Part shown: positions 1 to 64,000 of the stretch, one piece after another | Layout of the letters: every line of letters starts with the position of its first letter | Numbering within the stretch: position 1 is the stretch's first letter | From: Marinicella algicola | GTDB taxonomy: Bacteria; Pseudomonadota; Gammaproteobacteria; Xanthomonadales; Marinicellaceae | Direction: 5' to 3' | NCBI RefSeq assembly: GCF_028401385.1 | Contig: NZ_JAQOMR010000001.1 | Coordinates: 312,501-376,500 of the forward strand | Length of the DNA: 64,000 nt | Made by a program: the position numbers and the translations under genes | Notes under the pieces: model-generated | Told to the model about the DNA's origin: nothing | What the model saw: only the letters and a program-made list of their open reading frames with translations | Databases searched by the model: none

Positions 1-1
1 G

Positions 2-960
2 ATTGCCGAACTCGCGCGTCGCAGAATTGCACATATTATCGTCAATGGACGCATTTCCGATCGTTCCTTCCAGCGATGGATGCAGCGGCGGCAACTGGCG
101 CGGACATTGTTTTCGCGGTTTTCGCTGGTCATGGCCCAGACCGACATTGATGCCGAGCGCTTTGCCGACCTCGGTGCGTTGCATGTGACTGTCTCGGGCA
201 ATCTCAAGGTGGATCGCGATGCGCCCCCGGCTGATGACGACGCATTGACTGCGCTCAAACAAGCCGTTGGTGATCGCCCCGTCTGGGCTGCGATCTCGAC
301 CTTCGACGGCGAGGAAAAATTGCCGCAGATGTCCATACCGCTTTGAAGGAGCGGCACAAGGGGCTTTTGACCGTCATCGTTCCACGTCACCCGGATCGTG
401 GCGATGTGCTTGCGGGGCTGTTCGCCGCCAAGGGCCTCAATGTCCGGCGCCGCTCTCTGGGCGAAACACCGGCCGTTGATACCGATATCCTGCTTGGCGA
501 TACGATTGGTGATATGGGGCTTTACCTGCGCCTGAGTGAGATCGCCTTCGTCGGCCGGTCGATGACGGCAAAAGGCGGACAGAATCCGCTGGAGCCCGCA
601 ATCCTGGGCACCGCCGTTCTGACCGGTCCCTATGTTGAGAATTTCCGTGATACCTACAGGCAGCTGCGCCAGCGCGGCGCCGTGCGCACCGTCGAAGGGG
701 CGGAAGCGCTTATGCAGTCGGTCGATTTCCTGTTGCGCGACGCGGATGCACGCCGCCACATGATTGAGTCGGGCTATGCCGGTGTGCGGGATATGCGCGG
801 GGCACTGATCAAGACCATGAAGGGGCTTGAACGTTATCTTGCACCGCTTCGGCTGGAAGCCCGGTTTTTCGCCAGACCGAAGCCTGTTCCCAAGCATGAG
901 CGTTCCTTGACCATTCAGGAAAAACTTGCCAGTCAGGACCTGCGCAAGGCGCTGCGGTGA
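2..960 (+). CDS. waaA: 3-deoxy-D-manno-octulosonic acid (Kdo) transferase, 5' end outside window, one frameshift
   Basis: Transfers Kdo from CMP-Kdo to lipid IVA at the inner membrane during lipopolysaccharide core synthesis. The window opens inside the gene; about 319 codons are present, covering the C-terminal three quarters of a roughly 430-residue GT-B glycosyltransferase. Recognisable family blocks are VSGNLKVD, IVPRHPDR, LGDTIGDMGLYL and GGQNPLEPA. The reading frame breaks in the five-A run at 315-319: six A would join EEK to IAADVHTALKERHKG, which matches the family, so one base appears to be missing. The next gene, lpxK, starts 44 bases downstream, and the waaA-lpxK pair is usual in Rhizobiales. 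The identification is firm; only the frame break is odd and is probably a sequencing error. Confidence 0.93.
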
Positions 961-1003
961 ATTCTTTTGGCCGTGCCAACGTCAAGTCGGAGACGGCTTC
1001 CCA

Positions 1004-2039
1004 ATGCTTAGCAAAACTCAGCCTTTCTGGTGGAACGACAAGCGCCTCCTGAGCCGGCTGCTCTGGCCTCTTTCCTGGCTTTATGGTGCGGTTGTCGCAA
1101 GGCGGATGACGCGTATGCGAGGCGATCTTGTCACTGTGCCTGTTTTGTGCGTCGGCAATTTCACTGTCGGCGGAACCGGCAAGACGCCGGTTGCCGAAGC
1201 GCTCGCCCGGGCGGCGTTGGCACGGGGCAGGAAACCCGGCTTTGTATTGCGCGGTTACGGTGCGAAGATTACCGCGGCACGCCTCGTGGACCCGGAACGT
1301 CATACCTATGCCGATGTTGGCGACGAGGCGTTAATGCTATCGCGCACGGCGCCCGTTGCGGTCTCTCCCGGCAGGGTTGATGCCGCGCGGCTTTTGCAGG
1401 ACGCAGGCGTGGATTTCATCATCATGGATGACGGCTTGCAGAGCGGCAAGCTCAGGCCGGACTTCACGGTCGCTGTGGTGGATGCTCGCCGCGGGTTCGG
1501 CAATGGGTACTGCTTGCCGGCTGGTCCGCTTCGCGCACCACTTGCCGCCCAGCTCCCCAAAGCCGAGGTGATCCTGCTCAACGGGACCGGAAGCGCGGCC
1601 CCGTCCGTGGTCGCGGCAGCTGATCGTGCAAATGTGCCTGTCGTCCATTTCAGCCAGAAGCCGGTGGAGGGGCTGATCAAATGGCCGGCCAAAGGGTTCT
1701 GGCCTATGCGGGGATCGGTGATCCGCAAAAATTTTTGATACGCTCACATCTCTCGGGGCTGATGTTGCCGACAGGCAAGCCCTTGCGGATCATGCTCCGA
1801 TTACCGCAAGGCTGGCAGGCTCGCTCCTTGAGCGGGCCAGGCAGAACGGACTTGTTCTGGTCACGACTGCAAAGGACATGGCTCGGCTCGCCGGCGCTCG
1901 TGATGCTCACCTCGATGAATTGCGGACTGAGAGCACGGTGCTGGAAATCACTGCTGTATTCGAAGATGCAATGATGGCCGAACGATTCGTCTGTGCCACT
2001 GTCGATGCCTTCGAGGCGCGGACATACGGCCGCCGCTGA
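1004..2039 (+). CDS. lpxK: Tetraacyldisaccharide 4'-kinase, two frameshifts
   Basis: Phosphorylates the 4' position of tetraacyldisaccharide-1-phosphate to form lipid IVA, at the cytoplasmic face of the inner membrane. The Walker A motif GNFTVGGTGKTP lies near residue 50, followed by DGLQ and DARRGFGNG motifs. The ATG at 1004 follows a GGAGA site at 989-993 and gives the usual N terminus MLSKTQPFWW. Frame breaks occur near 1678-1690, before the QRVLAYAGIGDP block, and in the five-T run at 1732-1736 (QKFFDTL needs six T). Adding one base at each gives 345 residues ending at the TGA at 2037-2039, a normal LpxK length. The second half remains fully readable across three frames, so this is very unlikely to be a decayed gene. 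Confidence 0.92.
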
Positions 2040-2150
2040 ATGTGACGGTGTGGCCGTCGGCATGGACCGGCATCCGATTTTCGGTGGGCAAGCGGGGCTG
2101 TTTGGCGTATTCTTTCCGCGTACCGGCATTTTCAAGATCGGTTGGTTACG

Positions 2151-2657: not shown

Positions 2658-2790
2658 GTTCTGCCGGGCCAGACTATATCCGAAGTATGACGCCAGACCG
2701 TCAAATTAACGGAAGTCATTTCTCATTATTGCTTTGTCTGGCCAATTTGATTATCCAAGGCACGATATTTTTCCCTGTTTGGAGGCACGA

Positions 2791-3324: not shown

Positions 3325-3355
3325 GTTTTCGTCAGCCATTGACGCGGTTTCACGC

Positions 3356-3392: not shown

Positions 3393-3409
3393 TTATCTTT
3401 GTCTTTGTC

Positions 3410-3838: not shown

Positions 3839-5085
3839 ATGATCAATCCTGAGACCGGCGCCCGCTTCGACGCCTTTCGCCACCGTGGATATGCGCTCTA
3901 TTTTTACTCGCGTTTCCTGGGGACGTTTGCGGTTCAGATCGTCTCGGTCGCCGTTGGCTGGCAGATGTATGAGGAGACCGGAAATGCCTTCTATCTCGGC
4001 CTGATCGGGCTTTTCCAGTTCCTGCCCTCGCTGTTTCTGACATTGGTGACAGGTACGATTGCCGATCGCTACAACCGGCGCATGATTGCGGCGGTCTGCT
4101 TCGGCGTCGCCACCGTGTGTGCGGCAACGCTGCTGGCGATCACGATCCTCGGTCTGTTCTCGCCCTGGCCTGTTTTTGCATTGCTGGCCGTGTTCGGCAC
4201 GGAGCGCGCCTTTTCAGGCCCGGCGCTACAGTCGCTGGCGCCCAATCTCGTGCCGGAGAAGGATCTGGCTAATGCGATCGCCTGGAATTCCTCGTCATGG
4301 CAGATCGCCTCGATTGTCGGGCCTGTTGCCGGCGGTCTGCTTTATGGCATCGGCGCGACATTTGCCTATTCGACTGCGCTCGCCTTGTTTGCGGGCGCAA
4401 CAGTGCTGATGGTGATGGTGCCGAAGCCCGAAAGCCGCAGGCCGCAAAGTGCGGTGTCGCTTCAGAGCATTCTCGCCGGCTTTCGGTTCATCACTTCGGA
4501 AAAAGTGGTTCTCGGGGCGATCTCGCTTGATCTTTTCGTTGTTCTGCTGGGCGGCGCAGTGGCGCTGATGCCGGTTTTTGCGAGTGATATTCTGGATCTC
4601 GGCCCCTGGGGGCTTGGGCTGTTGCGCGCCGCGCCCGGCTTGGTGGTGTGCTCGTCGCACTTCTGCTTGCCAGTGTGCCGATCCGCCATCATGCCGGCTA
4701 CTACATGTTTGCAGGCGTTGCCATTTTCGGCGTTTCGACCGTGGTTTTCGGGCTTTCGACCAGCCCGTGGATTTCGATTACAGCGCTTGCTGTCATGGGC
4801 GGGGCCGACATGATTTCGGTCTATGTGCGTGAAACCCTGATTGCGCTGTGGACGCCGGACGAGCTACGCGGTCGGGTCAATGCCGTCAACATGGTGTTTG
4901 TCGGTGCCTCGAACGAGCTTGGTGAATTCCGCGCAGGCACCATGGCCCATGTTATCGGCGCGGTGCCCGCCGTTGTCTTCGGCGGTGTCGGCTCGCTGGC
5001 GGTCGCTGGAATCTGGGCGATGAAATTCACCAAACTCAGAAAGATCGACAGTCTGGAAACGCCCGATCATCTTGTCGGGCGCTAG
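3839..5085 (+). CDS. MFS transporter, EntS/MFS_3-like, one frameshift
   Basis: Major facilitator superfamily exporter, 415 residues after repair, with about ten to twelve hydrophobic segments. It resembles the EntS-like/MFS_3 branch: an N terminus of the type FDAFRHRGYALYFYSRFLGTFA, the loop motif GTIADRYNRR between helices 2 and 3, and AFSGPALQSLAPNLV in helix 5 to 6. The frame breaks at 4642-4643, where TTGG should read TTGGG so that APGLGGVLVALLLAS is continuous; the second half then runs in frame to TAG at 5083-5085. The substrate is unknown. It converges with the amidotransferase gene, ending seven bases before that gene's stop. One lost G is the simplest explanation of the break. Confidence 0.87.
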
Positions 5086-5091
5086 AGCGGA

Positions 5092-5791
5092 TCAACCGGC
5101 GTCGTCGAACACGATATCGAGGAAATTGTCGAGCCAGGCCTTGAGCGCGCGGTCATGCAGCATGCGGCCTTCGAGATGCAGATTGCCCGGCTGGGCCTTG
5201 GGCAGGCTGAAACGGCTTGCGCCCCGCACCACCCAGCTTTGCATCATCATCCGTGTCAGCTCAGCATGGAATTGCACGCCGTAAGCCTTTTGCCGTAGCG
5301 AAAGGCCTGGTTGGGGTACAGGTCGCCATGCGCCAGCAGGTTGGCCCCATGTGGCAGCTCGAAGCCTTCTCGGTGGAACTGATAGACCATGGACGGCCAT
5401 GTCATCAACAAACGGCCGTGATTGGTGGCCTCGATCGGATACCAGCCGATCTCCACTGACCCGTCATTATTGCCGTAAACCCTGGCGCCGAGCTGGCGCG
5501 CCAGCATTTGCGCGCCTAGGCATATGCCGAGAAAGGGGCGATCTTCCTTCAGCGGAATATCAAGCCAGTCGATCTCGCGCCGGACATAGTCTTCATTGTC
5601 GTTGGCGCTCATCGGTCCGCCGAAAACGACGGCGCCGGAATGGTTTGCAAGCGTATACGGCAGCGGGTCGCCCAGCGCCGGGCGGCGGATGTCGAGGGGA
5701 AAGCGCTTCTGCATCAGAAGCTGACCAACCCGGCCGGGTGTCGAACGTTCCTGATGGAGAATGATCAGGACGGGTTTTTGCTGTCACTCAT
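5092..5791 (-). CDS. Class I glutamine amidotransferase (GuaA-like), two frameshifts
   Basis: Cytosolic class I amidotransferase of about 233 residues after repair. The nucleophile elbow is FLGICLGAQML with the catalytic Cys, and the His-Glu pair is in GVQFHAELT; VVFGGPMSAND is the usual oxyanion-side motif. The N terminus (PVLIILHQERSTPGRVG) has no start codon in its own frame, but an ATG at 5791, overlapping the terB-like stop as ATGA, enters that frame if one base is missing in the run at 5772-5779. A second break in the four-A run read on this strand near 5291-5294 disrupts RYGKKAYGVQFH. The family is often annotated as GMP synthase-like, but no synthase domain is present, so its acceptor substrate is unknown. 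Confidence 0.83.
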
Positions 5792-6368: not shown

Positions 6369-8282
6369 TTATGACAATCGCCAGGAGAGGTGTTCAGAAA
6401 AACCTGCGTTTTTCGGCGGCGGTGCGTCATCGTCGTCGCTGTCTGAAATGCCCGGATCATCCGGTGTACGGCCGCCAAAGGCGAGAACCCAGGCTTCTTG
6501 TCAGCGTCTTCGTCCTCGTCCTCCGGCCCGCTTTCAGCCGGTTTCGGTGCGGCTAGGTCGTCTTCCGCAGTGCCTTGCTCTGGTACAGTCGCATCGTCCG
6601 TTGCCGGGTTTTCGGGGAGGTGTCCCTCACTTCCGTTTCGTCCAGAGCAGGCTCGGCTTCGGGTTCTTCAGGCGTGGCCCTTTCTGTTTCGTCTTCTGTT
6701 TCAGCGGCCTGCGCTTCATCCTCTTTGCCACCCGTGTCGGCGATATGAGCCGCCTCGGCAACGGCGGCCGGGGCCACGGCTGCGGCGTCAATCATTGTTG
6801 GGCCGGCGGGCTTATCTTCGGTCAGCCCCTCGGGCGCATTGCTTGCGAACGCCTCCGCTTTGGCCTCGGCGGCATCATCGAAGATCGGCGCAGTGTCGTC
6901 GGCAGGCTCTTCGGCTTTCACACCACCAATGGGCGGCAGGCTTTTCAGGGCTGCGTCCAGACGGGTGGCCGAACCTTCCTCGACGGGACCTTCGATCGCG
7001 CCGTAAGGCACTTTCCACTCGAACGCATCGATCTTGCCGGTCGCAGGCGAATAGGGGCGCCAGTATTCCGAAACCAGGCCGTCGGCGACCATGTCGGGTC
7101 GCGTTCGGCGCGCAGCGCTTGGGCCATCCAGTGGCGTACACGCCCCTGGTCTCCTGTTTCCGCTTCCTCGATATCGGCCAGCAGAAGAAAGGCGCTTTCG
7201 CGCGACTGCATACGCGCTGCCGCCTCCGCCTTGGTCCGGGCCTTTTCGAATTCGCGGGCGTCCAGCGCTGCGCGGGCAGCGACCATCAGCGAAACCGGGT
7301 TGTTGGGCTTCAGACCTTCGAGCTTTTCGGCCCGTTTCAGACGGTCGACGGCAGTATCGCCGCCACGGGCGCGCGCATAGAGCGCACCGGTCTGCGGGTG
7401 TGGTTCCTTCTTCCACACCATCTCCAGAACGCCTGCGGATTTTCTGAGATTGCCCTGTGCGAGATAGGCCTTGGCGGCGATGATCGCGGCAGGATGGAAA
7501 TCATCTCGCAGTTTCAGCGCCTGAAGCGCGTCGGCGGCCGCGCCCTTCTGATCGGTGTCAAGCTTGCTTTCAGCTCGTGCTGTCAGAAGAACGGCCTTGA
7601 GCCGGGCCGATTCCTGCTTGTCTGTAACCTTTGCCGAGCGCTGTTGGTCAAGCAACCGGATGGCATCATCCCAGCGGCCCTGACGGGTGCGGCTTTCCAG
7701 CGTCGCCTTGGCCGCCCAGGCCAGGTAGGGCGCCTTGTCGGCGGCGCGCTCGGCGTATTGCTGTGCGGCCTCGTCTGCGCCAACGCGTTTTGCCTCGAGG
7801 TAAAGACCGCGCAGGCCGAGTTCCTGTGTTTCGGGGTCGTCGGCCATGGTTTCAAACAGCCGCCGCGCCTTGTCGTGATTGCCCTCGATCAGCGCCACCT
7901 GCGCATCGAGCACGTGGATCAGCGGTTCCTGATCGACACTCAGCAGCGCATGGGCGCGCGTGCTCATCTTGCGCGCCATCACCAGATTGCCCGAGCCGGC
8001 TGCAATCAGACCGGTGGAGATTGCCTGATAGCCACGGTCGCGTTTGCGGGCGCGGAAATAGCGTCGTGCACTATTGGGGGAGGTCCAGAGTGCGCTGATC
8101 AGCCACCATACGACCATGACCACGAAAATCAACGCGATCAGCAGGGCAAGAGCGGTCGTCAGCGGTGTCTGGAACAGCTGGCCCTGCCATGTCAGCGTCA
8201 GCTCGCCGGGGCGGTCGGCAAACCAGGAGAAACCGAGAGCAAAGGCGAGAACGACGATCGCGAAAATGAGCAGTCTGATCAT
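6369..8282 (-). CDS. hemY: HemY domain protein (TPR-containing), three frameshifts
   Basis: Inner-membrane protein linked by gene neighbourhood to heme synthesis; not the Bacillus HemY protoporphyrinogen oxidase. The first 60 residues contain two membrane helices (MIRLLIFAIVVLAFALGFSW and LALLIALIFVVMVVWWLIS), followed by a long tetratricopeptide-like helical region with repeated alanine-rich pairs. The end of the globular part is WVADGLVSEYWRPYSP, and an acidic Pro/Ala/Glu-rich tail follows. Breaks occur at 7089-7090 (GG for GGG), 6613-6616 and 6463-6464. Repaired, the product is about 638 residues and ends PPPKNAGFSEHLSWRLS at the TAA at 6369-6371. The tail frames after the second and third break are supported by composition only. 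Confidence 0.85.
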
Positions 8283-8294
8283 ATCGTGCCCTCC

Positions 8295-9607
8295 TTAATT
8301 GGCTGGTGTGGATGGCGTTCCGGCAACCGGCGCGCCAGCGGTGCTGCCAAGCGCGCTTGCCAGCGTTTCCGACACCAGTTTGTTGGCCTTGATGCGAGCG
8401 GACAGTGCATTTTCGAAATCCGACGAGACCTGTTTGGCGTCCTCCGGCAGGGATTGCCATTCCTGCTCAGCCTGTTTGAGGTTGCCCTGCTTCAGGTCGT
8501 TTTCAATGCGTGCAACGATCGCGGGCGTGCCTTCGCCCTCGACATCGCCGACAGGGCGGACATTGACGAGGCCCTTGGCGCTGTCGACCAGGCGATTGAA
8601 AATGCCGGTATCGGGTGGCGGCTGGTTGGTGGCTGCAATGATGCTATCGGCGATCGATGAAAACTGCTCGGTCAGCGCTTCACGCGTCGGTACGCCGCTT
8701 GCAGCCAGCGATTTGAGCGTGGCCAGGTCTTTGGCTGCGGGGGCAACCTGCGCGTATGTCGCAAGCTCCGTCTCGAAATTCTGGCCCCGGTCGATGGCCG
8801 ATTTCAGACCGGCGGCGGCAATGGCGCGGGCCACGGCGAGATCCTTGCCGGGCGTGTTCACCTTTGCTCGAGCGCTGTCAGTTTCTGCTGCATGGCCTGC
8901 TGGGCGGAACTGATATTGCTTTTCAGGGTGGCGTTTTCCTGGGCAAGGGACTGCAGTTGGCTTGCATCGGACTGGACGGTGTTTCGAAGCTTTGAAACCT
9001 GCTGCTGAAGAGCGGCAACGCTGTCACTGCCATTGCCGGAGGATAGGCTTTCGATCTGGCTTTTCAGTGACGAGACGTCAGACTGAAGACTGCTGACGGC
9101 GCCGGACTGATCCCCGGATTTGAGGGTCGTGATTTCCTGGCGCAGGGCGGAAAGCTCGTCCTGCATCGATCCATTCGAAGATGACGGGCCAATAAGGCCG
9201 GCATAGGATAGTGCGGCGGCTCCCGCTAGTGCAATGACACCGCCCGCAACCCCTGCGGCGATGAAGCCACCGATACCCGGACCGTGGTTTTCCTGCGGCG
9301 GTTCATCTGCCGGAGGCGGCGGTGTTGCGGTATTGCCGCCGTCTGATATTGTTTCGGTCGTCTCATCAGCCGTCACGGTCTCGTCGGTTTCGCTGTCAGC
9401 TTCTCGGGAGGGCTCCTGCGCGCCGTGTTCTTCATGGCGCTTGATCGCCGCGGCGACATCGGCCATCGCCGTCTTGACGGCGGTGTCGTTATCTTCAGGC
9501 GCAACGGGCGGATTTCCGGTTTCGTGGCCGGCCTCATGGGCCGGCGTCACGTTGGTGTCTTCACGTTTTTCGTTCTTCGGGGGCTGTGACGGCGTGTCCG
9601 AAACCAT
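8295..9607 (-). CDS. COG4223 / mitofilin-like inner-membrane protein, one frameshift
   Basis: Alphaproteobacterial protein of about 437 residues related to the C-terminal part of mitochondrial mitofilin (Mic60), found between hemD and hemY in Rhizobiales. The N-terminal 100 residues are acidic and disordered. A Gly/Ala-rich membrane helix follows (PGIGGFIAAGVAGGVIALAG, near residue 115), then a coiled coil (ELSALRQEITTLKSG onward) and a helical C-terminal domain (AIDRGQNFETELATY). The ATG at 9607 follows AGAGG; an upstream in-frame ATG at 9694 has no clear site. The frame breaks in the three-base run at 8863-8865: EQKVNTPGKDL requires one more A. Its role in membrane organisation is inferred from the eukaryotic family and is not proven for bacteria here. 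Confidence 0.82.
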
Positions 9608-10441: not shown

Positions 10442-11369
10442 TCAGGTCCAGTCTTCGAAAAAGCCGGGGCCTGCTCGTTTCTTCAGTGTTTCGCCGGCAA
10501 AGCGCCCGAGCTTTTCGGCTTCACCACGCATGCCGTCGGTGACGATGTCGTGTGCGGTGACGCCGTCCGGGGTCAAAATCATGCCGGAAAACGAAATACG
10601 CTCGTTGAAGCAGCGGGCATAGGCCGCAATCGGGGTGCGGCAGGAACCGTCAAGGGCGGCCAGAAATGCCCGTTCGCAGGAAACGGCAACTGTCGTGTCG
10701 TCGTCGTTGACGGGAGCCAGCAGTGCGCCGATACGGGCATCGCCGCTGCGTTGCTCGATACAGATCGCGCCCTGGGCGGGGGCGGGCAGAAAATCGCGTA
10801 CGCTGAGGACTTCGGTTGCCACATCCTCCATGCCGAGACGTTGCAAACCGGCATGGGCGAGAAACGTGCCCTGCACCGCGCCATCAGCAAGCTTTGCAGC
10901 CGCGTCTGCACCGAGCCGCGGAACATCACCACCTCGATATCCGGCCTGAGGCGGCGAATCAGAGCCTGGCGCCTGAGCGAGGACGAGCCGACAACAGCCC
11001 CTTCCGGCAGGTCAGCGAGCTTTTGACCGCTCTGCCGATAAAGGCGTCGCGCGGATCGGCGCGGGGCAGAAAGGTGGTCAGTGTGAGGCCTTCCGGCAAC
11101 TTCGTCGGCATGTCCTTTGACGAATGTACAGCGAAATCAAGCTCACCCGACAGAAGCTGGGCTTCCAGCTCTTCGGTGAAAAGCCCCTTGCCGCCGATGG
11201 CAGAAAGCGGCCGGTCGGTGATCCGATCGCCCTTGGTGGAAAGTACCACGACTTCGAACATGTCTTCTGGCAGGCCATGAGCCACCATCAGCCGGTCGCG
11301 TGTTTCATGAGCCTGTGCGAGCGCCAGCGGGCTGCCGCGCGTTCCGATCCTGTAAGGTTTCGTTTGCAT
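10442..11369 (-). CDS. hemC: Hydroxymethylbilane synthase (porphobilinogen deaminase), two frameshifts
   Basis: Polymerises four porphobilinogen units onto its dipyrromethane cofactor. Family motifs are [14 protein letters not shown] at the start, [25 protein letters not shown] with the catalytic aspartate region, [13 protein letters not shown] and [10 protein letters not shown]. The cofactor-binding cysteine lies in [12 protein letters not shown]. The ATG at 11369 faces tsaD divergently. Breaks lie in the runs at 11021-11024 ([11 protein letters not shown] needs one more base) and 10893-10895 ([12 protein letters not shown]). Repaired length is 309 residues, as expected for the family. Four bases separate its stop from hemD. 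Confidence 0.94.
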
Positions 11370-12539: not shown

Positions 12540-13521
12540 GTGAGAAGAAAAGACTGTCGTCATCGGCTCGGGAGCATTCGGCACGGCGCTGGCCGCCGTT
12601 TTTGCCCATGAGGGCGAGGACGCGGTGACGCTGCTCGGCCGCAATGCCGAGCTGATTGAGACGATGCGGACAAGCCGTCGCCATGAAGGAGTGCTGCCGG
12701 GCATCACCTTGCCGGACGCGCTGAATTTCACCATCGATCCCAAAATTCTCGGTCAGGCTGATACCGTGGTGCTTGCCGTTCCGGCGCAGGCCCAGCGCGC
12801 AGCGGCACTTTATTACGCGCCCTATCTCAATAGCGAGGCCGTCATCATATCTGCGGCCAAAGGGATCGAGCGGGCCAGCAGTCGGCTGATTACCGATGTC
12901 TTGAACGAGGCGCTGCCGCGCCATCATGCAGGCGCGCTGTCCGGGCCGGGCTTTGCGATTGATCTGGCTGGCGGCAAGCCGATCGCCATGGCACTCGCTT
13001 TCCGGGATCGGACGTTGGCGCAGGAGACGGCGACGATCCTTTCCGGGCGGACTTTCAGGATTTATGCCTCCGGCGACCCCGTCGGCGTGCAGATCGGCGG
13101 CGCACTGAAAAACGTGCTGGCGATTGCCTGCGGCATTGTCGAAGGCGCGGAGCTTGGCGAATCGGCACGCGCAGCGCTGATTTCGCGCGGCCTTGCGGAA
13201 ATGTCTCGGCTGGCCGTTGCCATGGGTGGTGAGGCGGAGACCGTGCGCGGTCTTTCCGGCCTTGGCGATCTGGTGCTGACCGGCTCATCGCGCCAGTCGC
13301 GCAATTTCCGCTATGGCGTGGCGCTTGCCGAAGGTAATTTTGACGGGGTCAATGCAGCGCTTGTCGAAGGGGTCTATTCCGCCTCCGTCGCCAGCGAGCT
13401 TGCCGGCAGCTACGGTGTGCAGATGCCAATCTCGAATGCGGTCGCCCGCGTGCTCGAAGGCAAGCTCGACATACCGCAGGCGCTGGAAGAACTGATGACC
13501 CGGCCGATCACGACCGAATGA
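12536..13521 (+). CDS. gpsA: Glycerol-3-phosphate dehydrogenase [NAD(P)+], frameshift near start
   Basis: Reduces dihydroxyacetone phosphate to sn-glycerol 3-phosphate for phospholipid synthesis. The Rossmann motif is [12 protein letters not shown], followed by [25 protein letters not shown], and the catalytic lysine region [30 protein letters not shown] is the conserved substrate block. The ATG at 12536 overlaps the tsaD stop, but the frame fails in the four-A run at 12548-12551, where five A would join MSEKK to [10 protein letters not shown]. Repaired length is 328 residues. It is the second gene of a tsaD-gpsA unit that in Rhizobiales usually continues into yciI and an EVE-domain gene. Confidence 0.94.
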
Positions 13522-16152: not shown

Positions 16153-16532
16153 ATGGATATGCGTACACCGCTCAAAAGGTTCGCGGCCTCGGCTCCTCCA
16201 AGGAGGGCACCGGGCATTTCTGGATGCAGCGCATGACGGCTGTTGCTCTTGTGCCGCTCTTCATCTTCTTCATCCTGTTCGTCATCGCCCATCTCGGCGC
16301 GTCTTACGAGGCGGTCACCGCTTCGCTTGCCAATCCCTTCGTTTCCGTGCTGATGGCGATGATGGTGCTGGCCGGGCTGATCCACATGCGCATCGGCATG
16401 CAGGAAGTCATCGACGACTATATTCACAACGAGTTGTTGAAGCTTTCCGCTTTGATGGCGAACACGTTTTTCACAGTCCTGGTGGGCGGCTTCTGCATTT
16501 TCGCCCTCCTGAAGATTGCATTTGTGGGGTAA
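16153..16532 (+). CDS. sdhD: Succinate dehydrogenase hydrophobic membrane anchor, frameshift near start
   Basis: Second membrane anchor of complex II, 126 residues after repair. The ATG at 16153 opens MDMRTPLKK, which joins [24 protein letters not shown] only if the four-A run at 16174-16177 had five bases; the frame otherwise leaves the family sequence after residue 8. [15 protein letters not shown] holds the quinone-pocket Arg, and [17 protein letters not shown] holds the heme-side His and the conserved Asp-Tyr. Three membrane helices follow. It ends eight bases before sdhA. Confidence 0.93.
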
Positions 16533-19993: not shown

Positions 19994-21147
19994 ATGGCCG
20001 CGATGACGAGCGTTACCCAACGTCTTGAGACAATGACCGCAGCGGGCAAACTCAAGGCCGATGCCGCACAGCTTGCTGTAGCGGGCGCGCTTGACCATAT
20101 TCTTGTGAAGCTTGCCGCAGCCAGGCCCGCGGAGAAGGGGGGCGACTGATTTCACGCCTCTTCGGGCTTTCGCGTCAGCCCGGTGGACCGTTGGTGGACG
20201 GGCTCTACATCCATGGCAGCGTCGGTCGCGGCAAGACCATGCTGATGGACATGTTCTTCGAGGCAGCCCCGATCGCCGACAAGCGCCGCGCCCATTTTCA
20301 TGCCTTCATGGCCGATGTTCAGGAGCGGCTGAATGTGCACCGGCGCAAGCTGAAGGCGGGTGAGGTGAAGGAGGCTGATCCGATTGGCCCAGTCGCCGAT
20401 CAGATCATCGGCGAGAACCGGCTTTTATGCTTCGATGAGTTTACCGTGACCGACATTGCCGATGCGATGATCCTGTCGCGGCTGTTTTCCGCCCTGTTCG
20501 AGCGGGGCTGCGTGCTTGTGGCGACATCCAATGTCGCGCCTGACGATCTCTACAAGGATGGCCTCAATCGCGGGCTGTTCCTGCCCTTCATCACGGTTCT
20601 GAAACAAAATGTCACGGTAACGACACTCGATTCCGATACCGATTACCGCATGGAGAAATTCGAGGGGCGTCCGGTTTATCTCACGCCGCTGAACGACGAG
20701 ACCCGGCGCAAGATGGAGGAAAACTGGAACGTGGCCACAGGTGGCGCCGAAACCGGACCGGAAGAGCTTGAACTGCGCGGTCGCGTGCTGCATGTGCCAA
20801 AGGCGAGTGGCAAATTCGCGCGGTTCAGTTTCGATGATCTGTGCAGGAAGCCGCTTGGCGCTGCCGACTATATGGCGATCACCGATCGTTTCCACACTGT
20901 GTTCATCGATGACGTGCCGGTGCTGACCGCCGACCAGCGCAATGAAATCAAGCGCTTCATCATTCTCGTCGACACGCTTTATGACCGCACCATCCGCACG
21001 GTAATCTCTGCGGAAGCGATGCCCGAGGAACTTCTGGTTGATCGGAAGGGCCGCGAGGGGTTCGAGTTCGAGCGCACTGCCTCACGGCTTTTCGAGATGC
21101 GCAGCACGGATTATCTCGCCGCGCACAAGGAAAAATGGGCGAAATAA
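19994..21147 (+). CDS. zapE: Cell division protein ZapE (AFG1-like ATPase), one frameshift
   Basis: AAA-type ATPase of 384 residues after repair, related to yeast AFG1 and to ZapE, which acts at the Z-ring. The N terminus is MAAMTSVTQRLETMTAAGKLKAD. The frame breaks in the six-G run at 20137-20142; seven G joins RPAEKGG to RLISRLFGLSRQ. Walker A is YIHGSVGRGKTMLMD, Walker B is LLCFDEFTVTDIADAM, sensor 1 is LVATSNVAPDDLYKDG, and the C terminus ends in the usual DRTASRLFEM-type region (FERTASRLFEMRS). It lies upstream of mdh with 173 bases between them. Confidence 0.92.
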
Positions 21148-21320: not shown

Positions 21321-22282
<962 letters not shown>

Positions 22283-27669: not shown

Positions 27670-28913
27670 ATGGCCACTGAAATCCGCGTTCCCACTTTGG
27701 GTGAATCCGTTACCGAAGCAACGGTCGGCACCTGGTACAAGAAGGTCGGCGACGCCATCGTCGCCGATGAGCCGATTGTCGAACTGGAAACCGACAAGGT
27801 GACCATCGAGGTTCCGGCGCCGGCTTCCGGCACGCTTTCCGAAATCGTCTCCGGCGAAGGCGAGACCGTCGAACTTGACGCATTGCTCGGCCAGATCGCC
27901 GCGGGCGATGCCCCGGCCGCAGGCGGCGGCGAAAAGGAAGCCCCAAGGAAGCGGCTCCTAAGGAAGACGCGACGAAGGAAGAGGCAGCCAAGGTTGAAGA
28001 CAAGCCGAAGTCCGGTTCGGACATGCCGGCTGCTCCGGCCGCTGCCAAGATGATGGAAGAGAAGAACATTTCTTCCGATCAGGTTGAAGGTTCCGGCAAA
28101 CGCGGCCAGATCCTGAAGGGCGATGTGATCGCAGCTGCGACCAAGGGCACGTCTTCTCCCGCAGCGGAACCTACCAAGGCCGCGCAGCGTGCGCCTTCCA
28201 AGGTTGAGGATGCCGACCGCGAGGAACGCGTGAAAATGACGCGCCTTCGCCAGACCATTGCGAAGCGCCTGAAGGACGCCCAGAACACCGCGGCCATGCT
28301 GACCACCTATAACGAGGTGGATATGACAGCGGTGATGGAACTGCGCTCCAAGTACAAGGACCTGTTCCTGAAGAAGCATGACGTCAAGCTCGGTTTCATG
28401 GGCTTCTTCACAAAGGCCGTCTGTCACGCGCTGAAGGAAATCCCGGCGGTCAACGCCGAGATCGACGGCACCGACATCATCTACAAGAAGTTCTGTCATG
28501 TCGGCATGGCCGTTGGCACAGACAAGGGCCTCGTCGTTCCGGTCGTGCGTGATGCCGACCAGATGACGATTGCCGAGATCGAAGCCGAGATTGCCCGTCT
28601 TGCAAAGGCAGCGCGCGGCGGTCAGCTTTCGATGGCGGACATGCAGGGTGGCACCTTCACCATCACCAATGGCGGCGTCTACGGTTCGCTGATGTCCTCG
28701 CCGATCCTGAATGCGCCGCAGTCCGGTATTCTCGGGATGCACAAGATCCAGGAACGGCCGGTGGCAATCGGCGGTCAGGTTGTCATCCGCCCGATGATGT
28801 ATCTGGCACTGTCCTACGACCACCGTATGGTCGACGGCCAGGAGGCTGTGACCTTCCTGGTCCGCGTCAAGGAAACGCTGGAAGATCCCGAACGTCTCGT
28901 TCTCGATCTCTGA
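27670..28913 (+). CDS. sucB: Dihydrolipoyllysine-residue succinyltransferase (2-oxoglutarate dehydrogenase E2), one frameshift
   Basis: Core E2 of the 2-oxoglutarate dehydrogenase complex, 414 residues after repair. The lipoyl domain begins [19 protein letters not shown], with the lipoylated lysine in [13 protein letters not shown] near residue 43. An Ala/Lys/Glu linker follows, broken at 27945-27946 where one A is missing ([12 protein letters not shown]). Next come the E3-binding region [18 protein letters not shown] and the catalytic domain ending [12 protein letters not shown] with the active-site His and Asp. The ATG at 27670 is the family start. Confidence 0.96.
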
Positions 28914-30292: not shown

Positions 30293-31713
<1,421 letters not shown>

Positions 31714-38839: not shown

Positions 38840-40937
<2,098 letters not shown>

Positions 40938-41869: not shown

Positions 41870-43305
<1,436 letters not shown>

Positions 43306-43377: not shown

Positions 43378-43781
43378 ATGGCTGACATGCTGAATTTCGA
43401 GCTGGTGACCCCGAAAAGCTGCTGGCCTCCGCGGAAACGGATGCTGTCGTCATTCCCGCGGCGGAAGGCGAAATGACTGTCATGCCGGATCACGCGCCGA
43501 CCATGACGACGGTTCGCCCGGGCATGGTGAAGTTCAAAAACCGCGATGGCAAGGAATTTCAGTTTCTGGTGTTTCACGGCTTTGCCGATATCCAGGGCGA
43601 TTCCTGCACGTTGTTGGCCGAAACCGCCGTGCCGATCGGTGAGGCTTCGGATGCGATCGAGCATCGTATCAAATCTCTGCGCAAGGAGCTGGATGATGCT
43701 GGCCACCGTGAGCACAAGAGCGCTATCGAGCAGATGATGAACGAGCTCACGCATTTGAACGAAACTGTATTCCCGGGCTGA
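43378..43781 (+). CDS. atpC: ATP synthase F1 epsilon subunit, frameshift near start
   Basis: Rotor subunit and regulator of F1, 134 residues after repair. ATG 43378 opens MADMLNFELVTPEKLLASAETD; the four-C run at 43409-43412 needs one more C. The beta-sandwich has GEMTVMPDHAPTMTTVRPG, with the conserved DHAP-type motif, and the C-terminal helical pair is KSLRKELDDAGHREHKSAIEQMMNEL. It is the last gene of the operon and is followed by a terminator. Confidence 0.94.
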
Positions 43782-43989: not shown

Positions 43990-45523
43990 ATGCGTGGCGA
44001 TATCGTGATAGCGCTCGTTGTCGGCGTACTTGTTGTTGCCGTTCTGGTTTACATTGAATCTTTCGAGCGTCTTCATGAGTTTTCGCGCGCGCATGAAAGC
44101 TGGGAACTCGATGAGCTCTTTACCGCCTTGATGGTGGCGAGCGTCGGGCTTCTGATCCTGCTTTTCCGGCGTACACGTGACTTGAAGAGAGAGGTTGCCA
44201 GCCGTCGCGAGGCCGAGCGTCTGGCCCACGCACTCGCGCGTCAGGACCCGCTGACGGGCGTCGCCAACCGACGGTATTTCGAAGAGGAGTGCGAGCGCAG
44301 ACTGGCCCGTGCGCGCCGGCAGTCGGACCGTTTTGCGCTGATGTTCATCGATTTCGACCGTTTCAAGCAGATCAACGACAGTCTCGGGCATGAAGCCGGT
44401 GACAGGCTGCTTCAGGTTGTTTCGGACCGCCTGAAAAAGGGCGTGCGTCCGGATGATTTTCTCGGTCGGCTCGGTGGCGACGAATTCGCGATTTTGATGC
44501 AGGATGGCGGCGGGACGGATACGACCGAACAGGTGGCCGCCAGATTGCTGGCCGAAGTGTCGAGACCGGTCTCTTTCGTCGGACGTGAGATCACTCCGTC
44601 GATCAGCATCGGTATCGCGCTCTATCCGAAAGACGGCACCAATCGCGAAACGCTTGTCAAAAGGCCGATACCGCGATGTACCGCGCCAAAGATGAGGGCC
44701 GCCGCCGAATTGTTTCCTTCACAGATGCTATCGACGGCGGCTCCACCGTCGAAAACATGCTTGAGCTTGATCTGGCCGAGGCGCTTTCGTCGGGCCAGAT
44801 CGTTCCATATTACCAGTTGATCAGCAGTTGCAGTGCGGGCGATGTTCTGATGATCGAGGTATTGGCGCGCTGGCGGCATCCCAGACTTGGCGTGTTGAGT
44901 GCCGGCGATTTCATTCCTCATGCCGAGGCGGCCGGGCTGATCCCGGTACTGTTTTCCGCGATCCTGAATCAGGCCTGCAAGGATGCTTTGAAATGGCCGT
45001 CTGCCACGGCAATCGCCGTCAATGTTGCACCGCTTCAGCTGTGTGACCGCAATTTCGCTTCTATTGTTCTGGAAATATTGCGCGGCAATGGTTTCCCGCC
45101 GGTAAGGCTCGAGATCGAAGTGACGGAAGAGGCGATGGTTGTCGATCTTGAAACCACACGCATGAACATCAAGCGGCTCAAGGCCGAGGGCATCCGTGTT
45201 GCGCTGGATGATTTCGGTACCGGTTATTCCAGCCTGCGGCAACTGGAAAGCTTCCTTTTGACCGGGTCAAGATCGATCGCAGCTTTATATCCGGTGTCGG
45301 CAACGATCCGCAAAGCGACGAGATTGTCGCGTCGACGATCAAACTTTGCCATGCGCTGGGAATGAAAATCGTTGCAGAAGGGATCGAGGACAAGCAGCAG
45401 ATGGACTGGATCTGTGCGCACGGCGCCGATGCCCTGCAGGGCTATTTTAATGCTATGCCGGTGCCCGCCGAAGAACTGGCTGCGGCCTTGAAGGCATATC
45501 CCGACGGGCGGCCGCGTGGCTAA
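43990..45523 (+). CDS. Bifunctional GGDEF-EAL cyclic-di-GMP protein, two frameshifts
   Basis: Membrane protein of about 511 residues after repair. Two helices near the N terminus (DIVIALVVGVLVVAVLVYIE; LFTALMVASVGLLILLF) are followed by a GGDEF domain with RLGGDEFAIL. The inhibitory I-site RPDD lies exactly five residues before GGDEF. The EAL domain has EVL for EAL plus VNVAP, EVTEEAM, LDDFGTGYSSL, VKIDRSF and VAEGIED, so metal ligands and the catalytic lysine and glutamate are kept. Both activities look possible. Breaks are at 44663-44664 (VKRADTAMYRAK) and 45256-45259 (FLFDRVKIDRSF). The start is uncertain; the frame stays open upstream. Its stop overlaps the convergent WD40 gene. Confidence 0.87.
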
Positions 45524-46505
45524 TCTGAGATCGTCACGATCCCGCAATCGCCCGTTTCGGAAGCAAATGCCAGGCGTTGGCCGGCTTCATCCCACGAAAG
45601 AGCGGTGATGGCGCCCTTGCCCTGGCGGCGCAGCAGCGCTTCTTTGCCGTCGGAGATGCGCACCGCCAGCATCATGCCGTCGATAAATCCGATGGCCAGC
45701 ATTTCTTCGGACGGATGAAACGCAACCTGTGTGACCATGATGTTGGCACGGGTCCCGAGTTCCAGAGGCGCCTTGCCCATAGGCCCGTCCTTGCCGGAGA
45801 ACGGCCAGACGATTGCCGCTGGAGCGCCAGAGGTTGCTAGCCACTTGCCGCGCGGCGACCACGACCATGATTTGACCTTGGCGGGATAGCCGCTCATGCG
45901 CATGTGCCGCGCCTCGGCGGACAGTTTGCTGTCGAGCTTCCAGCCATGAAGGGCGTTTTCCTGCATCGAGGTCACGAGGAAGCGTCCATCTGGCGAGAAC
46001 GCGATTCCGATATGGGCGCCCTTCCATTCCAATTCGACCGGCGGGGCCGTGCCCGTGACCCAGTGCAGCGAAGCACCATTATAACGCGCGGCCGCGATCC
46101 TGAGACCCTTGGGCGCGAAAGTCACAGCCTCGACGCTACGCTCCTCGGTGAAGAGGTGCGAGGTGCCGCTGGCGATCACGCGGGTTTCCTTGCCGACCGC
46201 ATAGGCAACAGCACCGTGCGGCCCGCCGGAAACCGCCGAGATCCATTTGCGCGGGACGCTCGCCAGCTCTTCCGTCGAGCCATCCTTGGAAAGCCGCAGC
46301 ACCCTGCCGTCTTCGCCGCCCGTCAGCAATGTCTGACTGAACGGGTCGCGCACACAGGTCAGCAAGCCATCATGGGCCTGCACAACCTTTTCGCCCTCAT
46401 CGAGCCGGTGGACCGCGCCGCCGGCTGTGGCGAAGAACGGAACGCCGCCCAGAAAGGCGGTGGCGATGACGTGGTCGTCAATGTCGAGGGGGCTACGCTC
46501 GGCAT
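45520..46505 (-). CDS. WD40 repeat protein paired with CobW GTPase, frameshift near start
   Basis: Beta-propeller protein of about 328 residues after repair. Repeat-like units include LLTGGEDGRVLRL, VEAVTFAPKGLRIAAARYNG, IGIAFSPDGRFLVTSMQENALHGW, KSWSWSPRGKWLATSG, and ITALSWDEAGQRLAFASETG. The start is ATG 46505, overlapping the CobW-like stop (TGATG). It enters the propeller frame (MPSVAPLDIDDHVIA) if the five-G run at 46488-46492 had six bases. WD40 genes directly downstream of a CobW-family GTPase are common in Rhizobiales; their joint role in metal handling is an inference. Confidence 0.85.
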
Positions 46506-53067: not shown

Positions 53068-54836
<1,769 letters not shown>

Positions 54837-56020: not shown

Positions 56021-57179
56021 TTGAGCAAGAAATTATTTGTGCCGAAGGAGACGTCCGGCGCGGAAACGCGTGTGGCGGCTTCTCCCGACACAGTCAAAAA
56101 CTGAAAGCGCTCGGCCTCGACATCGTGATCGAGACGGGAGCGGGCTTTGCCTCTGGGATCGATGACGATGCGTTCCGCAATACCGGTGCCGAAATCGCCG
56201 GTCCGGATGCGGCATCCTCTGCCGATGTGATCTTCAAGGTGCGCCGGCCGGAGCCCCATGAGTTTGCTGCCTATAAAAACGGTGCGATCGTCGTGGCGAT
56301 GATGGATCCCTATGGCAATGAAGAAGCCCTTGGCGCCATGGCCGAAAAGGGATTTCGACGATTGCCATGGAATTAATGCCGCGCATTACCCGCGCGCAAT
56401 CGATGGATGTGCTCTCCTCGCAGGCTAATCTTGCCGGCTATCAGGCGGTGATTGAGGCGGCGGTCGTGTTTGACCGTGCCATGCCGATGATGATGACGGC
56501 GGCGGGCACTGTGCCTGCCGGCCGCGTTTTCGTCATGGGCGCCGGTGTTGCCGGTCTCCAGGCGATTGCGACGGCGCGCAGGCTTGGCGCCGTGGTTTCG
56601 GCAACGGATGTTCGCCCGGCTGCCAAGGAGCAGGTTGCTTCGCTCGGCGCAAAATTCATCGCGGTCGAGGATGACGAGTTCAAAGCGGCAGAGACGTCAG
56701 GCGGCTATGCCAAGGAAATGTCGGACGAATATAAGGCCAAGCAGGCCGAACTCGTTGCTGCACACATCGCCAAGCAGGATATTATCATTACCACCGCGCT
56801 GATTCCGGGCCGTCCGGCGCCGCGGCTGGTCACCCGTCAAATGCTGTCTGCGATGAAACTCGGTTCGGTCGCCGTTGACCTGGCAGTCGAGCGTGGCGGC
56901 AATATTGAGGGCGTAGAAGCGGACAAGATTGCCAATGTCGAGGGCGTTTCGGTTGTCGGCTATCTCAATCTGCCGGGCCGGATCGCGGCCTCCGCCTCGC
57001 TTCTTTATGCCAAGAACCTGCTCACCTTCTTCCAGACGCTGGTCGACAAGGAGAGCGGCGAGATCAACATCAACCGGGACGATGAGCTTATCGCCGCCAC
57101 GCTTTTAACGCATGAAGGCGCGGTCGTTCATCCGAAATTCGGCGGTGCTGCCGCCGGGGAGAGGCCTGATGGCTTTTGA
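56021..57179 (+). CDS. pntAA: NAD(P) transhydrogenase subunit alpha part 1 (domain I), two frameshifts
   Basis: NAD(H)-binding domain I of the proton-translocating transhydrogenase, 386 residues after repair. TTG at 56021, five bases after GGAGA, opens LSKKLFVPKETSGAETRVAASPDTVKKL. Breaks are in the five-A run at 56096-56100 and the GGG at 56349-56351 (AEKGISTIAMELMPRITRAQSMD). The NAD motif is RVFVMGAGVAGLQAIATARRLGA, followed by TDVRPAAKEQVASLGAKF and TTALIPGRPAPRLVT. The C-terminal end overlaps pntAB by 11 bases; a further missing G near 57157-57160 would give the end AAAGGEA and a TGATG overlap, which would be neater, so the last residues are uncertain. Confidence 0.94.
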
Positions 57180-61826: not shown

Positions 61827-62194
61827 TCACCCCTTGCGCGCCGGCATGAAGGCGGTGATGGCAACAAGCAGCCAGCTTGCGATCACCGATGTGCCGCCGA
61901 TAGGGGCGGCCATCGGGAAAAACCGAAACCGGCATAGTTTCGGGCGGCCAGATCGCCGGCAAAGAGGGCCGTTCCAAAGATCATCATGATGCCCGCCGCC
62001 AACGCCCCCATTGTTCGTGACGACAGGATTGCAAGGCCGATCAGGGCCGGGCCATTGGCAAGGCATATGAGAGCGGCGGAAAGCAGCACGGCGCTGTCGC
62101 CGTGATAGGAGGCAGCTGCCAGCATGATCCCGGCGGCACCTGCGAGGCCGCCGAAAAACAGCAATATGCGGGCGGAAAACGTCAGGTTGTCCAT
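61827..62194 (-). CDS. DUF423 membrane protein, one frameshift
   Basis: Four-helix membrane protein of 122 residues after repair. The first three helices are ILLFFGGLAGAAGIMLAAAS, AALICLANGPALIGLAIL and ALAAGIMMIFGTALFAGDL. The frame breaks in the five-A run (plus strand) at 61918-61922; six would continue GFGFFPMAAPIGGTSVIASWLLVAITAF, the conserved DUF423 end with APIGG. Function unknown. It starts only two bases after the truncated hemoglobin stop, so the two form a unit. Confidence 0.87.
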
Positions 62195-62196
62195 GG

Positions 62197-62589
62197 TCAG
62201 GCCTTGTTCTGCATGTGGTAGGCAAGCTTTTCGATCGGCGGCATGATGATCGCTCTGAGCTTGATGTCAGGCACCGTCTCTTCCAGCGCACGGCGGAAGC
62301 ACAGCAGCCACTCGTCGCGCTCCTCCGGCCCGATCGCTGCCGGCATGTGGCGCATCTTGAGCCGCGGGTGCCCATGCTTTTCAACATAGATGGGCGGCCC
62401 GCCGAGATAGCCTGTCAGATAGTCGCGAAATTTTGCCTCGGATCCGGTCATATCAGTGGGATGAATTGCCCGGCAATGCGCGGCTTCCGGCATGCTGTCC
62501 ATCAGTGCGTAGAAACGATGGGCAAGCCGTGCGACCGCATCGCTGCCGCCAATGGCCTCGTAAAGGCTGATCGTTTCCTTTGCGTTCAT
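62197..62589 (-). CDS. Group II truncated hemoglobin
   Basis: A 130-residue two-over-two globin. It begins AKETISLYEAIGGSDAVARLAHRFYALMDSMPE, the typical group II opening, and carries YLTGYLGGPPIYVEKHGHPRLKMRHMPAAIG, with the proximal heme histidine in the HGHPRLKMRH block and the conserved Trp near the G helix (DEWLLCF). ATG 62589 matches the family start; an upstream in-frame ATG at 62649 adds 20 non-family residues. Likely cytosolic, binding oxygen or protecting against nitric oxide; inferred from family. Confidence 0.9.
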   Translation of the reverse strand: MNAKETISLYEAIGGSDAVARLAHRFYALMDSMPEAAHCRAIHPTDMTGSEAKFRDYLTGYLGGPPIYVEKHGHPRLKMRHMPAAIGPEERDEWLLCFRRALEETVPDIKLRAIIMPPIEKLAYHMQNKA

Positions 62590-62633
62590 CGCACCATGCC
62601 CGGATCGTTCCACTTCATTCCGATGTAACCATT

Positions 62634-63397
62634 TCAGGTGGCGATGCAATGCAGCGATACACCTTTTTCCGTCAGGACCGCACGCTGCGCGGTGTCGAGT
62701 TCGTCACCGGTCAGGACCGCACTGAAGGTCTCAAGCCCGGTGAGGAAGTGCAGGCCCGGGCGGCCGAATTTGGTGTGGTCGACCAGAAGCACGCGGCGTT
62801 CCGCGCCTTTTACGATCAGCCGCTTGGTCTGAACCACTTCGGGGTCCTGATGAAATGCCTCGCCCTCATAGATCGCAGACGCGGAGATGAAGCTGATGTC
62901 AGCCCTCAGTCCGCGAAGTGCATCTTCGGTCAGTAGCCCGAAAAACCGTTGAATTTGCGGCTGTACTGACCGCCAAGTGCCATCAGTTCGATCCCGGCCA
63001 TTCCGGCGAGTTCGGAAATAACACTCAGATTGTTAGATATAACAGTCAGCGGCAGCCGCTGGGGAAGGTGGGCGGCGAGGTTTGCGGCGGTCGAGGAATC
63101 GTCGATCATCAGCGTCATGCCGGGCTCGATGAATTCGGCTGCTGCTGCAGCGATCCGCGCCTTCTCGCTGGCTGCCATCTTCTGGCGGTAGCGGAAATCG
63201 GCCTGAAACATCGCAGAGGACTGAACGGAAGCGCCGCCCCGCACCTTTCGCAACTGTCCGGAAGCTTCCAGCTCATCGAGGTCGCGATGCACCGTCATCT
63301 TGGAAATACTGAAGCGCTGGCTCAGTTCCTCCACGCTGGCATTGCCGCGTTCCATCAGCAGCGCCATCATCGCCGCCCGTCTTTCGTCCGCTCTCAA
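62634..63397 (-). CDS. DeoR family transcriptional regulator, one frameshift
   Basis: Sugar-responsive regulator of 254 residues after repair. The helix-turn-helix is NASVEELSQRFSISKMTVHRDLDELEASGQLRKVRGGA at residues about 19-56. The DeoR sensor domain starts YRQKMAASEKARIA, with the sugar-phosphate loop LMIDDSSTAANLAAHLP. The frame breaks at the five-A run 62941-62945, where six would join RKFNGFFGLLTEDALRGLRADISFISA. The C terminus has LLVDHTKFGRPGLHFLTGLETF. Divergent from the class II aldolase gene, so a role in sugar-phosphate regulation of it is likely. Confidence 0.87.
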
Positions 63398-63644
63398 AGC
63401 TCTGTCCTAAATCCGATGTTTCCGGAATTTTGATATAACACCATAGTTTACGGTATATATCACATATAAAAACGATTAAAATAACAATTAATATGATAAT
63501 TATAAAATAATTTTGTGATTTTCTGTTCCCGCTGTATCATTGTTGAAGAATTAAGTCATTCGCGCCGGAAACGGCTTGACGCTTGGCAAACACATTCAGG
63601 CCCACGTCGGCTATGGCGTTGGTCAGGCAACAGGAGAATTTGTT
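63398..63644. promoter_or_regulatory. AT-rich divergent region between DeoR gene and aldolase gene
   Basis: A 247-base gap with a markedly AT-rich core (about 63430-63540), in contrast to the GC-rich surroundings. It includes an inverted repeat AATTAT-AAA-ATAATT at 63498-63512 and several short A/T runs, likely promoter and operator DNA for both genes. I cannot assign individual -35/-10 elements. Confidence 0.5.
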
Positions 63645-64000
63645 ATGGCACGGGTTACCTTGAGGCAATTGCTCGATCACGCAGCCGAATACGGCTATGG
63701 CGTGCCGGCCTACAACATCAACAATATGGAGCAGGGCCTGGCGATCATGGAGGCCGCTCAGAAGACCGCATCGCCAGTGATCATCCAGGCAAGCCGCGGC
63801 GCGCGCGCCTATGCCAACGACTTGATCCTTGCAAAACTGATCGACGGGCTGGCCGAACTCTATCCCGACATTCCGCTGGTGATGCATCTCGATCACGGCA
63901 ACAGCGAACCGACCTGCATGACGGCGATCCAGTACGGCTTCACCTCGGTGATGATGGACGGTTCGCTGAAGGCCGATGGCAAGACGCCGTCCGATTACGC
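63645..64000 (+). CDS. Class II fructose-bisphosphate aldolase, 3' end outside window
   Basis: Zinc-dependent aldolase of the Calvin-cycle or gluconeogenic subtype. Only the first 118 residues are present: [40 protein letters not shown], then [17 protein letters not shown], and [30 protein letters not shown]. The HLDHG motif holds a catalytic Asp and zinc-binding His of the class II family. AGGAGA at 63632-63637 precedes ATG 63645. It is divergent from the DeoR regulator. The reading frame is clean up to the window end. Cleaves fructose 1,6-bisphosphate to triose phosphates, or a related sugar bisphosphate. Confidence 0.92.

What the first reader, a model, noticed from the sequence alone, without database searches (positions are those of the whole stretch)
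1..64000. Over 40 single-base frameshifts, nearly all losses in homopolymer runs, across the window
About 34 of some 70 genes are broken. Affected genes (with position) include waaA 315, lpxK 1680 and 1732, MFS 4642, GATase 5291 and 5772, hemY 6463, 6613 and 7089, COG4223 8863, hemC 10893 and 11021, gpsA 12548, sdhD 16174, zapE 20137, mdh 21363, sucA 25260, sucB 27945, lpdA 30448, cytochrome b561 32085, priA 36477 and 36566, atpA 40298, atpD 41945, atpC 43409, GGDEF-EAL 44663 and 45256, WD40 46488, dctM 53353 and 54152, pntAA 56096 and 56349, DUF423 61918 and DeoR 62941. Adding one base restores family sequence on both sides, and every repaired length becomes a multiple of three. Essential genes are hit as often as others, so uncorrected read error is the natural explanation. 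Any automatic annotation of this assembly would list many false pseudogenes.
Basis: partly seen in the sequence, partly recalled or inferred. Interest (0 to 1): 0.7.

Follow-up and report, generated by a model that had tools for sequence, protein, structure and literature searches.

The report
Homopolymer sequencing errors, not broken genes
The dozens of apparently broken genes here are almost certainly assembly errors in which runs of one repeated letter were read one letter too short, so the public sequence needs correction and the bacterium is probably ordinary.

Summary
Confirmed, and ordinary. Frameshift-aware protein-to-DNA alignment against relatives finds 31 single-base frame changes in 23 of 55 testable window genes: 29 losses and 2 gains, with no in-frame stop in 16,542 aligned codons. 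Of the other seven, three are supported, two rest mainly on reading the sequence, and two are weak. I add four sites, two of them gains in sucA.

Loss rises steeply with inferred run length: 0/8173 at length 2, 5/321 at 4, 15/83 at 5, 7/9 at 6. The excess of losses appears in all 17 regions examined on both contigs (1.7-9.4 per 10 kb coding; control-set averages 0.16-0.27).

RNA genes argue against recoding: the three rRNA operon copies differ by one-base run-length indels, one 23S copy lacks a base in a conserved helix, and one tRNA-Met copy lacks a C in its acceptor stem. Translation cannot rescue those.

Best explanation: uncorrected long-read consensus error, probably nanopore-type. Platform and reads were not available.

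The parts
312..322 (+). waaA: frame change, one base short at an A run
   Evidence: 3 of 3 refs
1664..1684 (+). lpxK: frame change, one base short
   Evidence: 2 of 2 refs
1728..1740 (+). lpxK: second frame change, A and T runs
   Evidence: 2 of 2 refs
4636..4646 (+). MFS transporter: frame change
   Evidence: 3 of 3 refs
5285..5295 (-). GATase: frame change
   Evidence: 3 of 3 refs
5766..5780 (-). GATase 5' end: likely start codon lies out of frame with the body of the gene
   Evidence: reading of the sequence; two refs begin at 5777-5780, one aligns to 5822 without an event
6455..6470 (-). hemY tail: possible frame change (weak)
   Evidence: conserved tail motif in another frame only
6595..6615 (-). 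hemY tail: frame change
   Evidence: 2 of 4 refs at lowered frameshift penalty
7082..7092 (-). hemY: frame change
   Evidence: 4 of 4 refs
8860..8870 (-). COG4223 gene: frame change
   Evidence: 4 refs; gene model
10890..10900 (-). hemC: frame change
   Evidence: 4 of 4 refs
11016..11026 (-). hemC: second frame change
   Evidence: 4 of 4 refs
12540..12552 (+). gpsA 5' end: frame change at an A run
   Evidence: sequence; gene model flags 12531-12545 with inconsistent sign
16170..16180 (+). sdhD: frame change
   Evidence: 3 of 3 refs
20134..20148 (+). zapE: frame change at a G run
   Evidence: 11 of 14 refs
21358..21368 (+). mdh: frame change at a G run
   Evidence: 12 of 12 refs
25255..25265 (+). 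sucA: frame change, one base short
   Evidence: 15 of 15 refs
   Evidence: 16 of 16 refs
   Evidence: 16 of 16 refs
27922..27946 (+). sucB: frame change
   Evidence: 14 of 15 refs
30442..30452 (+). lpdA: frame change at a C run
   Evidence: 14 of 14 refs
32082..32092 (+). cytochrome b561: frame change at a G run
   Evidence: 1 of 1 ref
36476..36486 (+). priA: frame change at a G run
   Evidence: 4 of 4 refs
36562..36572 (+). priA: second frame change at a G run
   Evidence: 3 of 4 refs
40293..40303 (+). atpA: frame change at a T run
   Evidence: 4 of 4 refs
41943..41953 (+). atpD: frame change at a C run
   Evidence: 4 of 4 refs
43404..43414 (+). atpC: frame change
   Evidence: 4 of 4 refs
44655..44667 (+). 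GGDEF-EAL gene: frame change at an A run
   Evidence: 1 of 1 ref
45248..45260 (+). GGDEF-EAL gene: second frame change
   Evidence: 1 of 1 ref
46487..46497 (-). WD40 gene 5' end: frame change at a C run (weakest of those aligned)
   Evidence: 2 refs; a third begins after the site
   Evidence: 2 of 2 refs
   Evidence: 3 of 3 refs
53350..53360 (-). dctM: frame change at a C run
   Evidence: 2 of 2 refs
54134..54152 (-). dctM: second frame change
   Evidence: 2 of 2 refs
56092..56102 (+). pntAA: frame change at an A run
   Evidence: 4 of 4 refs
56343..56353 (+). pntAA: second frame change
   Evidence: 4 of 4 refs
61912..61926 (-). DUF423 gene: frame change (weak)
   Evidence: gene model; weak Pfam match in one frame only
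62925..62945 (-). DeoR regulator: frame change
   Evidence: DeoRC domain split over two frames, profile 3-82 and 72-158; gene model

Best explanation
The frame changes are base-calling/consensus errors in an assembly made from long reads without adequate polishing. The sequencer under-counts runs of identical bases: on the estimates here a true run of 4 is read short about 2% of the time, a run of 5 about one time in five, a run of 6 or more most of the time. The cell's genes are intact. Shown here: loss bias, homopolymer location, dependence on run length, spread over both contigs, the same lesions in RNA genes, no in-frame stops. Inferred: that reads caused it, and that the platform was of nanopore type.
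For: 29 losses to 2 gains in 23 of 55 genes, and no in-frame stop in the best alignments of those 55 genes, 16,542 codons. Control: 9 losses, 8 gains and 10 in-frame stops in 144,129 codons of relatives by the same aligner. Loss by inferred true run length: 0/8173 (2), 1/1429 (3), 5/321 (4), 15/83 (5), 7/9 (6), 1/1 (7). A run of 4 or more lies near 20 of 29 losses against 2.2 expected. A reference-free gene model gives 1.7-9.4 losses per 10 kb coding in 17 of 17 regions, second contig included, against averages of 0.16-0.27 in four control sets. The open parts of the three rRNA operon copies differ at 7 distinct single-base indel sites, all in runs, and 5 substitutions; inside 23S there are two indel sites and no substitution. 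One copy thereby loses pairing in a conserved 23S helix and one tRNA-Met copy has a shortened acceptor strand. Genes of ATP synthase, the TCA cycle and haem synthesis and priA are hit (their importance is general knowledge). The published pattern is the same: PMC8011154 and PMC12007338 (abstracts and passages seen).
Against: No reads were available. The two tuf copies (1,175 aligned bases) show 9 substitutions and no indel, where about one loss might have been expected in two copies; neutral given the small number. The two sucA gains are not in homopolymers and share a context, so a second error mode is needed. Run assignment took the longest run within 7 nt, which leans the length table towards long runs; the random-site control does not share that bias. 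The aligner penalises stop codons, so a stop could in principle be skirted, though it did report stops in the control. References were unbroken reading frames by selection, so their intactness is not independent evidence.
Confidence: 0.97

Rival explanations
1. The genome is truly decaying (for example a recent host-restricted lineage) and these are real pseudogenes.
For: Many frameshifts in many genes, in every region sampled.
Against: No in-frame stop in 16,542 aligned codons; protein identity stays high across the breaks (82% sucA, 89% atpA against the best ref); indispensable genes are hit; the genome is 4.67 Mb with no sign of reduction; losses follow run length; one tRNA copy and one 23S copy are hit while a sister copy is intact.
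Confidence: 0.015
2. The cell decodes through the breaks: pervasive ribosomal frameshifting, or transcriptional slippage that restores run length in mRNA.
For: The reading frame of the family resumes after each aligned break.
Against: No common motif was seen beyond runs, of any of the four bases (G 9, A 8, T 6, C 6); relatives rarely show such events (9 losses in 469 genes); rRNA operon copies and a tRNA show the same lesions and are not translated; runs of 3-5 G or C are short for slippage (general knowledge).
Confidence: 0.005
3. Variant of the best explanation, not exclusive of it: the error comes from another platform that undercounts runs (454, Ion Torrent, PacBio) rather than nanopore.
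For: All of these undercount runs (recalled); [quoted passage not shown]
Against: Two contigs, of 4,303,775 and 369,026 bases, argue against short-read 454 or Ion Torrent alone.
Confidence: 0.25

Closest known systems
Homopolymer indel errors in nanopore-only bacterial assemblies (Homopolish, PMC8011154; abstract and passages seen)
   Same: Systematic errors left by polishing are described as mainly homopolymer indels that shift reading frames and create excess pseudogenes (151-5298 given for Racon-Medaka on R9.4). In one isolate (E. anophelis SUE) read-based polishers left 7,891-11,753 deletions.
Gene-fragmenting errors in long-read assemblies (Kastor, PMC12007338; abstract and passages seen)
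   Same: Correcting fewer than 2,000 detected indels lowered annotated pseudogenes from 23.3% to 5.6%; deletions follow long runs; many insertions do not follow runs.
   Different: Insertion contexts named there (CCCA, TCCA, ACCA) are not the one seen at the two sucA gains.

Membership tests
Uncorrected long-read homopolymer error | Losses far outnumber gains | tested here: met
   29 to 2 by alignment; 128 to 33 by the reference-free model, where many gains look like gene-overlap artefacts
Uncorrected long-read homopolymer error | Events sit in homopolymer runs and rise with run length | tested here: met
   the two gains do not
Uncorrected long-read homopolymer error | Genome-wide, blind to gene function | tested here: met
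   17 of 17 regions; essential genes hit; no formal test of essential against other genes was made
Uncorrected long-read homopolymer error | Non-coding RNA genes carry the same lesions | tested here: met
   23S and tRNA copies
Uncorrected long-read homopolymer error | Accurate reads from the strain show full-length runs | not testable with these tools
   no reads held
Degenerate genome | Nonsense substitutions and relaxed selection accompany indels | tested here: not met
   0 in-frame stops in 16,542 aligned codons of 55 genes; 10 in 144,129 in the control
Programmed or pervasive recoding | Shared slippery motif at the sites | tested here: not met
   losses share only runs; enriched words near losses are mostly run-bearing
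Programmed or pervasive recoding | Restricted to translated genes | tested here: not met

The most novel reading that the evidence does not exclude
A minority of the short runs are real and the strain lives with them, through transcriptional slippage or recoding in runs, on top of a background of assembly error. My evidence cannot exclude this for any single coding site, only for the pattern as a whole.
Probability: 0.01. Interest if true: 0.8.

Novelty: not a real feature. Interest (0 to 1): 0.07.

Why it matters
Only as a data-quality warning. In 15 sampled regions outside the window the gene model puts a frame change in 106 of 256 genes of 300 nt or more, against 22 of 163, 10 of 130 and 27 of 269 in controls at the same setting. 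Yet the assembly is labelled 100% complete with 0.08% contamination, so completeness scores do not reveal it. Pseudogene counts, gene-loss claims and protein clusters that use this genome would be wrong. If the pattern were somehow real it would be remarkable, but the RNA genes argue against that.

Tried and rejected
First version of the frameshift gene model put false frame changes at ordinary gene ends and almost none on minus-strand genes; its costs were rebalanced before the counts used here. Many gains called by that model look like gene-overlap artefacts, so I rely on alignment for the gain count.

Longest-ORF references taken from relatives included shadow ORFs on the wrong strand and were replaced by model-predicted genes.

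Homopolymer length spectra: no G/C run of 6 or more in 300 kb of own sample and one in the window, but relatives of similar GC range from 0 to 24 per 100 kb at length 6, so this agrees with the reading without proving it.

A systematic GATCCGC error was tested after the two sucA gains and rejected: the word is as common as a Markov model expects, 173 against 167.

tuf copy comparison was uninformative. Naming the organism: the first 20 kb of the second contig gave no near match in the plasmid collection, where own records may be left out; the best listed sucC relatives include Aquibium, Nitratireductor and Phyllobacterium at 82-87%. It looks like a member of the Hyphomicrobiales; I could not tell the genus. 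A 16S search of the own genome found nothing, probably because parts of the rRNA operons are withheld.
Full report
WHAT WAS CLAIMED.

CONTEXT. The window is G000:C1:312501-376500 of a 4,672,801-base genome in two contigs, 4,303,775 and 369,026 bases, labelled 100% complete and 0.08% contaminated. Close listed relatives by sucC are Nitratireductor (87%), Aquibium (86%) and Phyllobacterium (85%) in protein identity. The genus could not be told.

CHECK BY ALIGNMENT. I located homologous regions in relatives, fetched them, predicted 667 unbroken reference proteins and aligned them to the window with a local protein-to-DNA aligner that allows 2-base and 4-base codons at a penalty. Of 279 candidate alignments 270 passed the coverage and identity filter. 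They cover 55 window genes, 16,542 aligned codons in the best alignments. 23 genes carry 31 events: 29 losses and 2 gains; no best alignment contains a stop. gpsA 12548 and GATase 5772 rest mainly on reading. For gpsA the model flags the place with inconsistent sign; for GATase one of three refs aligns past the place without an event. hemY 6463 and DUF423 61918 are weak.

CONTROLS. The same aligner run between relatives (469 genes after the same filter, 144,129 codons) gives 9 losses, 8 gains and 10 in-frame stops; in 5 of the 12 affected genes the events are compensating pairs. The loss rate per codon is thus about 28 times higher here. A reference-free gene model with frameshift states finds 128 internal losses and 33 gains in 328,133 coding bases over 17 own regions. 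Every region is raised, 1.7 to 9.4 losses per 10 kb, the window at 2.5 and the second contig at 4.8. Four control sets (G017; G015; G013/G019/G020/G014; G021-G024) average 0.16-0.27 losses and 0.18-0.40 gains per 10 kb. The model found 14 internal losses in the window where alignment finds 29, so its rate is probably an underestimate. Extrapolating 3.9 to 5.8 per 10 kb to the genome gives roughly 1,800 to 2,700 losses; this is an inference.

HOMOPOLYMERS. Within 6 nt of the 29 losses the longest run is 4 or more at 20 sites, against 2.2 expected at random positions in the same genes, and 5 or more at 8, against 0.3; no draw of 5,000 reached either. Assigning each loss to the longest nearby run gives a loss fraction of 0/8173, 1/1429, 5/321, 15/83, 7/9 and 1/1 for inferred true lengths 2 to 7. 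All four bases are affected (G 9, A 8, T 6, C 6). The assignment favours long runs, so the exact fractions are soft, but the trend is steep.

RNA GENES. These separate assembly error from any decoding mechanism. Comparing the open parts of the three rRNA operon copies (parts are masked, and the third copy is open only from the later part of 23S), I count 7 distinct single-base indel sites, all in runs, and 5 distinct substitutions. Four of the substitutions lie past the tRNA gene and one between 23S and 5S; inside the 23S gene there are two indel sites and no substitution. The 23S copy in L097 lacks a G in a helix that pairs fully in the copy in L096. The tRNA-Met copy in L098 (an initiator tRNA by recall of its features) lacks one C of a five-C run in its acceptor strand; its score falls from 64.9 to 53.3 bits and it is one base shorter. 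No ribosomal trick can mend an rRNA or a tRNA. Two tuf copies show no indel, which is neutral.

GAINS. The two sucA gains, each supported by 16 of 16 references, share a local context outside homopolymers. The 6-mer CGAGAT or its complement lies within 15 nt of 5 of 33 model-called gains against a background of 3.1% (P 0.003, a motif chosen after looking, among several tried). A second, rarer context-dependent error mode is plausible; PMC12007338 reports such contexts for nanopore insertions, though different ones (passages).

MECHANISM. Consensus from reads that undercount run length. PMC8011154 (abstract and passages) describes systematic nanopore errors as mainly homopolymer indels that shift frames and gives 151-5298 pseudogenes after a Racon-Medaka pipeline on R9.4. 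PMC12007338 (abstract and passages) reports that correcting fewer than 2,000 detected indels lowered pseudogenes from 23.3% to 5.6%. The numbers here fit that class. One literature search was made, 12 of 37 papers listed. The platform is inferred.

VERDICT. It is an artefact of a well-known kind with no biological novelty.

Noticed in passing
window 26152 and 27206: Two single-base gains in sucA share a local context and are not in homopolymers; CGAGAT is over-represented near model-called gains (5 of 33 within 15 nt, background 3.1%, chosen after looking). Possibly a second, context-dependent error mode.
   Followed up: partly
L113 (G000:C1:3550001-3570000): Highest loss density of the 17 regions, 9.4 per 10 kb coding, with two genes called with four or five losses; perhaps locally low read coverage.
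   Followed up: partly
L098 3255-3330: tRNA-Met copy one base short in its acceptor strand while two sister copies are intact.
   Followed up: yes
L180, L181 (tuf copies): The two EF-Tu genes differ by 9 substitutions within about 300 bases and by no indel.
   Followed up: partly
own sample, 384 kb: Several palindromic 6-mers are under-represented against a Markov expectation, CTCGAG most (138 against 300); could be restriction avoidance.
   Followed up: no
whole genome: Quality labels of 100% completeness and 0.08% contamination coexist with frame changes called in 106 of 256 sampled genes, so such labels do not flag this fault.
   Followed up: partly
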